This document shows positions 21,194 to 32,468 of a stretch of DNA of 34,324 nucleotides, piece after piece (the first letter of the stretch is position 1; each line of letters starts with the position of its first letter). Source of the stretch: Candidatus Sungiibacteriota bacterium (GTDB lineage: Bacteria > Patescibacteriota > Minisyncoccia > Sungbacterales > HO2-52-23); contig JACOYX010000005.1 of NCBI GenBank assembly GCA_016181585.1, positions 1-34,324 of the forward strand. Reading direction: 5' to 3'. Under the pieces are notes generated by a model. The model had not been told where the DNA came from. It ran no database searches and saw nothing but the letters and a program-made list of their open reading frames with translations. The position numbers and the translations under genes were made by a program.

Positions 21194-21229
21194 TCCAGCA
21201 AATATGCGCGATCGCGCATATTTGCTGGA
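21194..21229. repeat. Perfect 36-bp palindrome with CGCGATCGCG centre
   Basis: TCCAGCAAATATGCGCGATCGCGCATATTTGCTGGA. Confidence 0.9.
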
Positions 21230-21354
21230 ATTGCTTGGAGAAGGCATGGGTATGAAGAGTTTATTTGAAGAAACCATGCGATATTGAGTGTGTGATGTAT
21301 TAGCAATGTGTTGGTATTATGTCGGCGTTGCAAAGGGTATTTAATCAGGGGAAT

Positions 21355-21383
21355 TTGTAAATGATTTTATGAAATGGTAGAAA
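21355..21383 (+). promoter_or_regulatory. Predicted promoter with leaderless spacing
   Basis: TTGTAA-N17-TAGAAA; -10 ends 7 nt before the ATG at 21390. Confidence 0.4.
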
Positions 21384-21389
21384 ATAGAT

Positions 21390-22373
21390 ATGAGCGAATC
21401 TAATATAAAAAAAATCATCATCACCGGAGCTGCGGGATTTATCGGTACTAATGTTGCAAAACACCTTTCGGAGAAAGGGTATTCTGTTGTTGCGGTTGAT
21501 TATTTAAAGGATAGTGATGAAGTAAAAAAGAAAAATCTTGAGGCATTTAAATATGAAAAATATTACGATCGGGATGAATTTTTGGAATTGGTGAAAAGAG
21601 ATGCTTTGCCGCCGGTGGAGGCGATAGTTCATTTGGGGGCGGATACGAACACGCAAGAAACTGATACGGAATATCTTTTGAAAAATAATACCGAATATAC
21701 AAAGGAGCTCTTCTTATATTGCGTTCGAAATAACGTGCGGTTTTTGTATGCTTCGTCTGCCGCAACATATGGTGACGGATCAAAAGGTTATTCTGATAAT
21801 GAGCGCAATCTTAAGCCGTTAAATCCCTATGGCCTTTCTAAGCATCTTTTCGACGAGTGGTGTTTGGAGCAAACAAAAAAACCGCCGCAATGGGCTGGGT
21901 TTAAGTTTTTTAATGTATGCGGGCCGCATGAGGAGCATAAAGGCACTATGGCTTCGGTTGTGTATAAAGGATTTCATGAAATTCAAAAAACGGAAACCCT
22001 AAAATTATTTAAATCATACCGCAATGGGTATAACAACGGCAAACAAAAGCGGGATTTTATATTCGTCGCAGATATTGCGAGCGTCATTTTATTTTTTCTG
22101 GACCATCCGGAAAAGACAGGAATTTTTAATGTGGGTACGGGACAAGCGCGGACGTTTCTTGATTTGGGACATGCGTTGTTTAAGGCACTTGGCAAGAAAC
22201 CAAATATAGAATTTATCGATATGCCGGAGGGATTGAAAGACCAATATCAATATTTCACTGAAGCGGATATAGGAAAACTGCGAAGTGCCGGCTACACCAA
22301 AGAATTTACTTCGCTTGAGGAAGGGGTGAGAAAATATGTAGTGTGGTTGAAAAATAAAAACACCATCGCTTGA
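21390..22373 (+). CDS. hldD: ADP-L-glycero-D-manno-heptose 6-epimerase
   Basis: IIITGAAGFIGTNVAKHLSEKGY...FLYASSAATYGDGSKGY...KPLNPYGLSKHLFDEW...GFKFFNVCGPHEEHKGTMASVVYK...KRDFIFVADIASVILFFLDHPEKTGIFNVGTGQARTF...LRSAGY; strong resemblance to HldD. Confidence 0.92.
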   Translation: MSESNIKKIIITGAAGFIGTNVAKHLSEKGYSVVAVDYLKDSDEVKKKNLEAFKYEKYYDRDEFLELVKRDALPPVEAIVHLGADTNTQETDTEYLLKNNTEYTKELFLYCVRNNVRFLYASSAATYGDGSKGYSDNERNLKPLNPYGLSKHLFDEWCLEQTKKPPQWAGFKFFNVCGPHEEHKGTMASVVYKGFHEIQKTETLKLFKSYRNGYNNGKQKRDFIFVADIASVILFFLDHPEKTGIFNVGTGQARTFLDLGHALFKALGKKPNIEFIDMPEGLKDQYQYFTEADIGKLRSAGYTKEFTSLEEGVRKYVVWLKNKNTIA

Positions 22374-22380
22374 TGGTGTG
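22347..22380 (-). terminator. Rho-independent terminator for the minus-strand gene
   Basis: On the minus strand: ACACCATC-AAGC-GATGGTGT followed by TTTTATTTTT; overlaps the hldD stop codon. Confidence 0.75.
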
Positions 22381-22384
22381 AATG

Positions 22385-29620: not shown

Positions 29621-29638
29621 TAGTCTCGATATATTTTT

Positions 29639-31051
29639 ATGGCACAAGAGTATAAAAAAACAATTTTACTTCCGATCTATCATGGCATGCGCGCAAAGAA
29701 TTTTCTGCTTACGGATACGTATCGCGAGCTCGCCAAAGACACGGCAATTCGTCTTGTCATTGTAGCGCCTTCGTTTAAGATTGATTATTATCGGCGCGCC
29801 TTTCCGGAGGCGGATGTTGTCTTTGCGCCGCTGGATATAAGCCCGAATGACGAACCTTTGTTTGGAAAATTGCTTGCGGAGCTTGCTTTCAATTCGCTTG
29901 ATACGAATACGATTCGCTTCAAGCAGTTGCTGCAATATTGGCAATACGGCAATTTACCGCGGTTTTTTTTGAAGCGCACTCTCAATTATATTTTTGGTTC
30001 ATTTACTTCATCCAGATCCGTTATCCGATTTTTGGATCGTTTTGTGGCGCCTCATGCCGCGGTTTTGCGTATTTTTGATCAATATAATCCCGATTTGGCG
30101 CTTGCGCCTGACATTGTTTTTCCGATTGACCGTTTTTTTCTTCGCGCAGCGCGGAAAAGAGGGATTCCTACGGCAGGCATGATGCGTTCGTGGGACAATA
30201 TTACTGCAAAAGGGGTTGTGCAGATATTGCCGGATATGTTAATTCTTCACACGACGCGCATGAAGAGGCTTGCAGAAAAGCTGGTGGGAATGCCGGCAGA
30301 AAAAATAATGGTAAGCGGTCCTCCGGACTTCGATGACTATTACAAGCCGGCCATTTTTTCGCGCGAGGAGTTTTGTCAAAAGCTTGGTATTCCTGCGAGC
30401 CGGCGCATTGTGTTGTTCACTCCGTTTTTTGACGCATCTATTGACTCGGCAATCATACTTCTGCAGGAACTTTTAAAAGCGCTTGATGATGGCCGGATTC
30501 CTTACGATGTACAAATACTTCTGCGCTACCGTCCCGGGTATACTGCCGCATCTTCTCTTGCAATTCCATCTCATCCGCGTCTTGTGATTACCTATCCGTG
30601 CGAGCAGTATTTTTATGGGAAGAAAGGCGCGAAAGAAAGAATTATTGACTGGGAATTTTCAAAGCAAGATGTGGATCTGCTCACTCATTCTATGCGCTAC
30701 AGCGAGGTGATGGTGAATACCGTTTCTACGCTTACGATAGATTCCGCGGCTTGCGACAAACCGGCAATAGGGGTACGGTTTGACGCCGCGCCCAACTGCC
30801 CACCTGAACATCAAATAACCAAAGTTATGGATCTCCACGATCACTATAGAGAGCTTGAACGCACGGGAGGGATACGGCTGGCTAAAAATATCGACGAGCT
30901 GATCGGGAGTATTAATTTTTACCTCAAGCATCCGGAAGCCGATCGCGATGGAAGAAAGCGGATTTGCGAAGAGCAGATTGAATTTTTTGACGGGAAAAAC
31001 GGTACGCGCGCCGCGGAATTTATTAAAAGTGCAATTCGTCCAGCACATTGA
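29639..31051 (+). CDS. Uncharacterised GT-B-like protein, paralog family P (copy 4)
   Basis: KTILLPIYHGMRAKNFLLTDTYREL; GMMRSWDNITAKGVVQILPDMLILHTT; STLTIDSAACDKPAIGVRFDA. Confidence 0.7.
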   Translation: MAQEYKKTILLPIYHGMRAKNFLLTDTYRELAKDTAIRLVIVAPSFKIDYYRRAFPEADVVFAPLDISPNDEPLFGKLLAELAFNSLDTNTIRFKQLLQYWQYGNLPRFFLKRTLNYIFGSFTSSRSVIRFLDRFVAPHAAVLRIFDQYNPDLALAPDIVFPIDRFFLRAARKRGIPTAGMMRSWDNITAKGVVQILPDMLILHTTRMKRLAEKLVGMPAEKIMVSGPPDFDDYYKPAIFSREEFCQKLGIPASRRIVLFTPFFDASIDSAIILLQELLKALDDGRIPYDVQILLRYRPGYTAASSLAIPSHPRLVITYPCEQYFYGKKGAKERIIDWEFSKQDVDLLTHSMRYSEVMVNTVSTLTIDSAACDKPAIGVRFDAAPNCPPEHQITKVMDLHDHYRELERTGGIRLAKNIDELIGSINFYLKHPEADRDGRKRICEEQIEFFDGKNGTRAAEFIKSAIRPAH

Positions 31052-31076
31052 GTTTTTTGGTTTTTTACCCTATTCT
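31048..31076 (+). promoter_or_regulatory. Predicted promoter close to the ATG at 31087
   Basis: TTGAGT-N17-TATTCT; -10 ends 11 nt before the ATG. Confidence 0.4.
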
Positions 31077-31086
31077 GGGGTTATAT

Positions 31087-32334
31087 ATGTCTCATCCCGA
31101 TTACAGTTTTGCCATAAAAAAGTTTCGCGAGCTTCATAATTGGAAAATCCTCCGGATCACCAAAGACGTTTCGCTTGTTGAAATATTGGATTGTCCCAGC
31201 AAGTGCGGGGATTTTCGCACGCTCGCTGTGCTTACCGGCAATCATGGGGCAAGATTTTTGCGCGTCGGCTGTTGCGGTGCGTGCGGATATGTGGGGTATA
31301 AAGACAAGCCGACAAAAGAGTGGATCACCAAATTCTATGCGAGCACATGGGATGGAAGCAAAAAAGACGTGAAAGGGCAGGAACGCTATGTTGCAGAACT
31401 CATGGCGGAAAAGCGAAAGAAATATATGTCGGACAGCAAGGAATTCGTCCGCGTGCGCATGGTGATAGAGCGTTTTGCGCCGTATCTCGATAAAGAAAAA
31501 CCTATTTGCGATATCGGTTCGGGGTTTGGACTTCAGCTCGATCATTTCAAACGTCTTGGATTTAAGCAGGTATTTGGCATGGAGGCATCACCGCATCGCG
31601 CAGAGGTTGCACGCCGCGCTTTTGGCTTGCAGGTGCAAAACGGCGTATTTGAAGGGGAGGAAGTGCAAAATTCGTTAGGCGCTCACGGCCCATTCGGGTT
31701 GATTTATTCGAACAATGTCATTGAGCATACTTATGCTCCGGAAGAAATTCTTGCGTTGAGCGCGGCATTGCAGAGGGAAGGAGATTATTTTATTGCCTCG
31801 CTCCCAAGGTTTCGCGGCGACCCTTCACTCTCCACGCTTTTGTTTTTTCCACACCTCAATTCTTTTACCCAATTTGCGTTTCAAAAATTGCTTCTCGCGC
31901 ACGGCTATAAAATGAAGGACGAACTTTCAACCTCGCATGAAATTTGCGTGCTCGCCCAAAAAACCGAGCCGGCCATGCTGTCGTCCGGAAGAGATTTTTT
32001 TGCGGAGGCACTCGCAAAATACGAACGTTTTTTCAAATTCAACCGGTTTAAAAAAACTAGCGTTTTTTGGTGTGCGCGCGATACGGATGTTTCCGGCACT
32101 CTTCCTTATTTTGGCGACAATAAATTCACGCGCGTGGGCGAGCTAGTGTGGGCAAAGATGCTTCGCAGGCAATTTGCGGGAGACCCGCCGTTGGTCAACG
32201 GCATACCGGATTTACCGATTGCGGGCGGCATGATTTCTTTTGTTGTCGGCCCCGTGGAGAAACGTTTTACCGATGCGCAATCTTCACCCATAGAAATTCA
32301 ATTCGAGGATGATATAATGTTGACATATAGATAA
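31087..32334 (+). CDS. SAM-dependent methyltransferase with N-terminal Cys-rich segment (paralog of 22789..24030)
   Basis: CCGACGYVGYKDKPTKEWITKFYASTWDGS; ICDIGSGFGLQLDHFKRLGFKQVFGMEASPHRAEVARRAFG; YSNNVIEHTYAPEEI; SSPIEIQFEDD. Confidence 0.85.
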   Translation: MSHPDYSFAIKKFRELHNWKILRITKDVSLVEILDCPSKCGDFRTLAVLTGNHGARFLRVGCCGACGYVGYKDKPTKEWITKFYASTWDGSKKDVKGQERYVAELMAEKRKKYMSDSKEFVRVRMVIERFAPYLDKEKPICDIGSGFGLQLDHFKRLGFKQVFGMEASPHRAEVARRAFGLQVQNGVFEGEEVQNSLGAHGPFGLIYSNNVIEHTYAPEEILALSAALQREGDYFIASLPRFRGDPSLSTLLFFPHLNSFTQFAFQKLLLAHGYKMKDELSTSHEICVLAQKTEPAMLSSGRDFFAEALAKYERFFKFNRFKKTSVFWCARDTDVSGTLPYFGDNKFTRVGELVWAKMLRRQFAGDPPLVNGIPDLPIAGGMISFVVGPVEKRFTDAQSSPIEIQFEDDIMLTYR

Positions 32335-32430
32335 CTGAGATCAAAATATTTTTTATATCTATGCAGTTTGTAGTTCAGGAACGTGTTTGGTGAACAGTGT
32401 AATTCATACAATAGTTTTTTATATTATTAG

Positions 32431-32468
32431 CCACCACCTAATTCCGCGATCGCGGAATTAGGTGGTGG
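32431..32468. repeat. Perfect 38-bp palindrome with CGCGATCGCG centre
   Basis: CCACCACCTAATTCCGCGATCGCGGAATTAGGTGGTGG. Confidence 0.92.

What the first reader, a model, noticed from the sequence alone, without database searches (positions are those of the whole stretch)
21194..32468. Palindrome family with invariant CGCGATCGCG centre and freely differing arms
Three perfect palindromes occur: 21194..21229 (TCCAGCAAATATG|CGCGATCGCG|CATATTTGCTGGA), 24032..24073 (TTTTCCAGCATTTATC|CGCGATCGCG|GATAAATGCTGGAAAA) and 32431..32468 (CCACCACCTAATTC|CGCGATCGCG|GAATTAGGTGGTGG). A decayed fourth is at 14159..14186. The arms are unrelated in sequence but perfectly self-complementary, while the centre is constant. 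All are intergenic, downstream of stop codons. They lack the T-tract of ordinary terminators, which are present separately here. The centre contains GCGATCGC, the octamer known as HIP1 in cyanobacteria. Constant loop/centre plus covarying arms suggests recognition of a cruciform or ssDNA hairpin, or of a methylated GATC/CGATCG site.
Basis: partly seen in the sequence, partly recalled or inferred. Interest (0 to 1): 0.8.

Follow-up and report, generated by a model that had tools for sequence, protein, structure and literature searches.

The report
Palindrome repeats tied to Cas2-like genes
The odd palindromes in this Patescibacteria window belong to a widespread family of short, perfectly symmetric DNA repeats that, in related bacteria, bracket and travel with genes for a small Cas2-like protein, which suggests a mobile-repeat system unlike the known transposase-based ones.

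Summary
In detail: three perfect palindromes (36, 42, 38 nt) centred on CGCGATCGCG plus a decayed fourth. They are part of about 18 in this 867-kb Patescibacteria (Sungbacteria-related) genome, and their arms fall into recurring subfamilies rather than differing freely. HIP1 is a coincidence: the conserved part is C[GT]A|T[AC]G, usually CGATCG.

The key result came from a sister genome. Two such palindromes bracket a 209-aa gene with a winged helix and a PaaX_M/Cas2-like domain (PF20803; Foldseek best hits PaaX and Cas2). In the order, 44 of 60 such genes have an even palindrome within 300 bp. Flank density is about 30 times the rest of the same loci, 41 of 64 flank centres are CGATCG, and paired palindromes share arms. 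An independent set of 80 named loci repeats this. Gene and palindromes co-occur over 392 genomes (odds ratio 6.2, p=9e-13), arms co-diverge with the protein, and solo copies are dispersed. One gene-plus-palindrome unit sits at different places in two sister species.

Best reading: a REP/RAYT-like system built on a Cas2-like dimer instead of a Y1 transposase. Binding and mobilisation are inferred. This genome (86% complete) shows no such gene.

The parts
21194..21229 (.). Perfect 36-nt palindrome, subfamily TCCAGCAAATATG, centre CGCGATCGCG; solo (gene-less) copy 67 bp after the stop of a glycosyltransferase-9 gene
   Evidence: R2 42.2 bits
24032..24073 (.). Perfect 42-nt palindrome TTTTCCAGCATTTATC-CGCGATCGCG; arms match (11 of 12 nt) the palindrome beside a Cas2-like gene in genome G195 (Yonathbacteria UBA11698); solo copy between convergent genes
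32431..32468 (.). Perfect 38-nt palindrome CCACCACCTAATTC-CGCGATCGCG, second subfamily; solo copy between convergent genes
14155..14190 (.). Decayed copy of the 21194 type (centre GATT, outer pairs broken)
   Evidence: (R1 54.2 bits)

Best explanation
The palindromes are solo copies of a short mobile palindromic repeat belonging to a two-part system found across Patescibacteria. The repeat is a 34-60 bp, dyad-symmetric, Watson-Crick palindrome with a constant centre (C-GATC-G, less often C-TATA-G or similar) and family-specific arms. The partner is a 175-240 aa protein with an N-terminal winged helix and a C-terminal Cas2-like (PaaX_M) ferredoxin domain; its gene is typically bracketed by two copies of its own palindrome. 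Proposed mechanism: a C2-symmetric dimer of the Cas2-like protein binds the dyad-symmetric palindrome, with the conserved Cas2-like domains at the constant centre and the fast-evolving winged helices on the arms. Using the invariant Asp of the FDIPE motif it takes part in cutting and copying the palindrome (or the whole gene-plus-palindromes unit) to new intergenic sites, as RAYT proteins are thought to do for REPs. Shown: the palindromes, the constant centre, the bracketing, co-occurrence, arm/protein co-divergence, dispersed solo copies, and a unit at non-orthologous sites in sister species. Inferred: binding, nuclease activity, mobilisation. In this window only solo copies are present; their gene is either in the missing 14% of the assembly or lost.
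For: 1) Centre conserved between genera with different arms: G000 subfamilies, and G009 TTTTTCAYTAATTCGCGA|TCGCGAATTARTGAAAAA, 8 copies. 2) In G009 two copies bracket a 209-aa PF20803 gene (E 2.6e-21), 57 bp upstream and 55 bp downstream. 3) 44 of 60 homologous genes in the order have an even palindrome within 300 bp, 13 at both ends; 61 palindromes in 35 kb of flank against 7 in 119.5 kb elsewhere in the same loci; flank centres CGATCG 41, CTATAG 8; background CGATCG 0 of 7. 4) Independent 80 loci from named genomes: 58 palindromes in 57.6 kb flank against 16 in 308 kb; upstream and downstream arms of one gene agree 10.5 of 12 nt against 4.7 for different genes. Also seen in other classes of the phylum. 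5) Across 392 genomes: gene+pal+ 89, gene+pal- 126, gene-pal+ 18, gene-pal- 159; odds ratio 6.2, p=9e-13. 6) Arms track protein divergence (Mantel rho 0.127, p=0.001; at 60-80% protein identity mean 6.4 of 12 and over 80% 11.75 of 12, against about 4.5 of 12 below 50%). 7) Dispersed solo copies with the arms of a resident gene: G009, G032, G195, G045, G275. 8) Window arm AGCATTTATCCG is 11 of 12 identical to the arm beside a gene in G195. 9) L178/L179: gene plus palindrome 79% identical between two species of one genus while flanks are unrelated; homology stops at the palindrome on one side. 10) Fold: PaaX and Cas2; FDIPE Asp invariant in 50 sequences. 11) E. coli PaaX binds TGATTC(N27)GAATCA, a widely spaced inverted repeat (39 bp in all) of similar span (PMC9493321).
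Against: G000 itself has no detectable gene of the family, as do 17 other palindrome-bearing genomes; G006 has 7-8 genes and no palindrome reaching the R2 threshold, only imperfect ones. 126 of 215 gene-bearing genomes have no R2 hit (strict filters, one model). The Mantel correlation is weak at long range. The 392 genomes are related, so the co-occurrence p-value is optimistic. No target-site duplication, empty site or strain polymorphism was demonstrated. Cas2 alone is not known to integrate DNA. No biochemical data.
Confidence: 0.6

Rival explanations
1. Operator sites: the PaaX-like protein is a transcriptional repressor and the palindromes are its binding sites, placed near its own gene for autoregulation and at a small regulon elsewhere; they spread by ordinary selection, not by mobility.
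For: The protein has a winged helix and is structurally closest to PaaX; PaaX autoregulates and binds a widely spaced inverted repeat (PMC9493321); arms co-diverge with the protein.
Against: Palindromes also sit downstream of the gene (32 of 58 genes) and most solo copies lie within about 100 bp downstream of stop codons or between convergent genes, not at promoters; up to 9 near-identical 46-50 nt copies occur per genome (G032); perfect symmetry over more than 40 nt exceeds the needs of an operator; a gene-plus-palindrome unit sits at different places in sister species.
Confidence: 0.2
2. Transcription terminators or 3'-end hairpins that stay perfect because they work in both directions.
For: In the window and in G000 all copies for which neighbours could be called lie near a 3' end, none between divergent genes; some copies have T-rich outer arms; two minus-strand copies pass a loose terminator scan.
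Against: Most lack a T-tract on the + strand; family-wide 11 of 54 solo copies lie between divergent genes, no less than background; ordinary terminators are separate; terminators do not explain a constant centre, bracketing of one gene family, or arm sharing; mismatches do not clearly favour G-U over A-C (downstream 55 against 36, upstream 43 against 47).
Confidence: 0.08
3. Repeats of a RAYT (Y1 tyrosine transposase), as in classical REPs.
For: G000 carries four RAYT-size Y1_Tnp genes with hairpin repeats near them.
Against: Those hairpins have other sequences and odd 1-5-nt loops; no RAYT of the order has a CGCGATCGCG palindrome beside it; G009 has 8 palindromes and no Y1_Tnp.
Confidence: 0.04
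4. HIP1-like methylation sites (GATC/CGATCG) preserved by an orphan methyltransferase.
For: Centre contains GATC and CGATCG; orphan methyltransferases recognise these in cyanobacteria (PMC4390886 abstract).
Against: Centres CTATAG, CTTAAG and CGTACG occur in the same role; low genome-wide abundance; does not explain arms or gene bracketing.
Confidence: 0.02

Closest known systems
REP / RAYT (TnpA-REP) systems (PMC2817692, PMC3733652)
   Same: Short intergenic palindromes dispersed in the genome; a dedicated single-copy gene bracketed by two copies; several divergent gene/repeat pairs per genome; palindromy preserved while the sequence changes; repeat and protein co-diverge.
   Different: Protein is Cas2-like/PaaX_M, not an HUH Y1 nuclease; palindromes are perfectly dyad-symmetric with an even, constant centre; no GTAG/CGTC head tag seen; copy number is low (about 2-20).
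PaaX-family repressors
   Same: Winged helix plus Cas2-like central domain; E. coli PaaX is the best structural match; binds a widely spaced inverted repeat.
   Different: Shorter; far below the PaaX NCBIfam cut-off (30.8 against 264.6 bits); many copies per genome; palindromes on both sides and dispersed.
Cas2 (CRISPR) and VapD-like stand-alone Cas2
   Same: Ferredoxin fold with an invariant Asp at the end of strand 1; some members are named Cas2 in databases.
   Different: Below the Cas2 model cut-off (22.6 against 24.5 bits); extra winged helix; several solo genes per genome.
HIP1 (GCGATCGC) of cyanobacteria (PMC4390886)
   Same: Octamer present in many centres.
   Different: Not abundant genome-wide; embedded in long palindromes; A as frequent as G before CGATCG.

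Membership tests
REP/RAYT | Associated Y1 (PF01797) HUH transposase | tested here: not met
   No RAYT in the order has these palindromes beside it; G009 has palindromes and no Y1_Tnp
REP/RAYT | Dedicated gene bracketed by two copies of the repeat | tested here: met
   With a Cas2-like gene instead
REP/RAYT | Unpaired head tag (GTAG or CGTC) at one end of an imperfect palindrome | tested here: inconclusive
   No such tag stands out by eye and the palindromes are perfect; in G009 a one-sided GGTTTATYAATG is conserved
REP/RAYT | Dispersed intergenic copies | tested here: met
   About 18 in G000, 15 R2 palindromes in G009, 9 in G032
PaaX regulators | Full-length PaaX model match | tested here: not met
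   TIGR02277 30.8 bits, cut-off 264.55; the PF20803 domain alone is met, 75.9 bits against 24
Cas2 | Cas2 equivalog model above cut-off, in a CRISPR locus | tested here: not met
   TIGR01573 22.6 bits, cut-off 24.5; CRISPR context not examined separately
Intrinsic terminator | T-tract after the stem | tested here: not met
   Absent on the + strand at all three window copies; loose minus-strand matches at two
HIP1 | Highly iterated octamer genome-wide | tested here: not met
   GCGATCGC 4 times in the window against 1.46 expected, three of them in palindromes; CGCGATCGCG 17 in 867 kb
Described RNA family | Rfam match | tested here: not met
   0 matches in the window
Mobile element | Empty site or strain polymorphism | not tested
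   Only one unit at non-orthologous sites seen

The most novel reading that the evidence does not exclude
A previously undescribed class of mobile DNA in Patescibacteria: perfectly symmetric palindromes mobilised by a solo Cas2-like, winged-helix protein acting as a dimer without Cas1 or any known transposase, a possible independent counterpart of REP/RAYT.
Probability: 0.45. Interest if true: 0.92.

Novelty: new variant of a known kind. Interest (0 to 1): 0.78.

Why it matters
Cas2-like proteins are known as the partner of Cas1 in CRISPR adaptation, as toxins and as part of PaaX repressors. A phylum-wide family bracketed by, and co-diverging with, dispersed palindromes would be a new role for the fold, a mobile-repeat system in very small genomes, and would give a function to a large gene family now labelled hypothetical, Cas2 or PaaX. 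It also makes a testable pair: each protein comes with its own candidate DNA site.

Tried and rejected
RAYT link: looked for and rejected. HIP1 and general CGATCG abundance: rejected. A 3'-end preference: true in the window, not family-wide. C-rich 5' arms (C/(C+G)=0.81) as a specific mark: other palindromes in the same loci, mostly terminators, show 0.71, so not specific. RNA-level selection through G-U mismatches: inconclusive. Loss of the G000 gene by assembly breaks at palindromes: only one of the 27 contig ends read lies in a palindrome (C26 start), so weakly supported. G014's 48 CGCGATCGCG looked promising but those read are not in long palindromes. Rfam, plasmid and phage searches gave nothing; IMG/VR gave one relative. 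Literature searches found no paper on PaaX/Cas2-like genes with palindromes in this phylum, within an open-access library only. The search for related loci with the 50-row alignment failed for lack of conserved stretches and was redone with nine rows.
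Full report
OBSERVATION. The window (contig C7 of an 867-kb, 31-contig, 86% complete genome, G000) holds three perfect palindromes at 21194-21229, 24032-24073 and 32431-32468, all centred on CGCGATCGCG, and a decayed copy at 14159-14186. The next longest perfect palindrome is 18 nt. The decamer occurs four times against 0.12 expected; the fourth, at 9826, is not in a palindrome. 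Genome-wide there are 17 copies of the decamer; 13 sit in long palindromes (perfect or with one mismatched pair, 36-58 nt) and the other four do not. A covariance model built from 14 of them finds 15 members in G000, including one with centre GATA (C12:13530). Others have related centres: C5:24657-24708 ...CCCCACGA|TCGTGGGG..., C25 ...ACTTGCTA|TAGCAAGT..., and a decayed one at C28:23844. The arms fall into subfamilies (TCCAGCAAATATG, TCCAGCATTTATC, CCACCACCTAATTC, GGCAAATATCC), so they are not unrelated. Outer arms do differ between copies of one subfamily and are still self-complementary.

FROM PALINDROME TO GENE. Two of these copies lie 741 bp apart and bracket a 209-aa gene. The protein matches PaaX_M, the Cas2-like domain of PaaX (PF20803, E 2.6e-21), but falls below the full PaaX and Cas2 models. 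An AlphaFold2 model (pLDDT 84) has a winged helix and a ferredoxin domain; the best PDB matches are E. coli PaaX and then several Cas2 structures. G009 has no Y1 transposase.

TESTING THE LINK. Sixty homologous genes were found in 17 of 23 genomes of the order; all belong to one family. Forty-four have an even palindrome within 300 bp of an end, 13 at both ends. Flanks hold 61 palindromes in 35 kb; the rest of the same loci hold 7 in 119.5 kb. Flank centres are CGATCG 41 times, CTATAG 8, CTTAAG 3; none of the 7 background centres is CGATCG. The constant part is therefore C....G around GATC or TATA, and GCGATCGC is one case of it (before CGA: G 45, A 41). As an independent set, 80 loci from named GTDB genomes (nearly all titled as Patescibacteria-group MAGs) gave 58 palindromes in 57.6 kb of flank against 16 in 308 kb; arms on the two sides of one gene agree at 10.5 of 12 positions against 4.7 for different genes. 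A few of these 80 come from genomes already used in the first set. Other classes of the phylum show the same. Across 392 genomes of the class, gene and palindromes co-occur (89/126/18/159; odds ratio 6.2, p 9e-13; genomes are related, so the p-value is optimistic). Arm similarity follows protein similarity (Mantel rho 0.127, p 0.001; strong only above 60% identity).

MOBILITY. Solo copies with the arms of a resident gene occur in G009, G032, G045, G195 and G275. In G009, solo copies CTTATGCTTATCCGCG-NN-CGCGGATAAGCATAAG match the palindromes bracketing a gene in its sister G012. Many genes are syntenic between sister species, but L178/L179 show one gene with a palindrome 79% identical between two species of one genus in unrelated surroundings, the homology ending at the palindrome on one side. 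No target-site duplication was identified. The window's own 24032 palindrome (AGCATTTATCCG) matches 11 of 12 arm positions with the palindrome beside a gene in G195, which ties this window to the system although G000 has no detected gene.

HOW IT MAY WORK. PaaX binds a 39-bp inverted repeat, TGATTC(N27)GAATCA (PMC9493321). A dimer of the present protein on a 34-60 bp palindrome would place Cas2-like domains at the constant centre and winged helices on the variable arms. This is inference. The invariant Asp of FDIPE leaves catalysis possible. Perfect symmetry suits a C2 dimer, in contrast to the odd-looped hairpins beside the RAYT genes of these same genomes. The strongest rival is that these are operators of a repressor; placement downstream of genes, downstream flanking copies and near-identical multicopy repeats speak against it.

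KNOWN KINDS. It works like REP/RAYT (PMC2817692: RAYT genes flanked by two REPs) but fails the membership test on the protein. It is not HIP1, not a terminator family and not a known RNA family. Open literature gave no description of palindromes with PaaX/Cas2-like genes in this phylum, though only open-access papers were searchable.

Noticed in passing
L056-L059 (G000 C5, C2, C13, C24); L087-L114: G000 has four single-copy Y1_Tnp genes of RAYT size with hairpin repeats around them (for example CTTGGAAGCT-N-AGCTTCCAAG, CCTATGAGATC-N-GATCTCATAGG); related RAYT/REP pairs occur across the order, some repeats such as CTATAGAGGCT-N-AGCCTCTATAG in several genera.
   Followed up: partly
L289-L293 (G195), L046/L050/L052/L054 (G000), L058 (RAYT REPs): Copies of one palindrome subfamily have a constant core but different outer arms that are still perfectly self-complementary (G195: CCAAACCCAAATC, CCCCCCCACCATC, TCCCCC, CCCCT). 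How unrelated flanks become palindromic is unexplained; template switching or insertion into hairpins are candidates.
   Followed up: partly
L061, L068, L071, L073, L077, L131 (G009): The G009 palindrome carries a conserved outer GGTTTATYAATG on one side only in most copies, so the dispersed unit is asymmetric there.
   Followed up: partly
L051:4526-4571 (G000 C25): A 46-nt perfect AT-rich palindrome CATATCAGATATATATCAGATAG|CTATCTG... without the family centre.
   Followed up: no
G000 contig ends (L381, L382, L396, L047, L048, window end): Several contig ends share a repeat like GAGGCCTATC...GATAAGCCAAGAAATTTT, probably a multicopy element that breaks the assembly.
   Followed up: no
L139:228-365 (G009 C11): A 138-nt near-perfect inverted repeat (66-bp arms, 6-nt loop).
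   Followed up: no
L290:2675-2746 (G195 C4): A 72-nt perfect palindrome with centre TCT|AGA, not of the family type.
   Followed up: no
window 3847-33452: Surroundings look like a surface-polysaccharide region: glycosyltransferases (GT1/4 type, GT9 type), an NAD-dependent epimerase and several methyltransferases.
   Followed up: partly
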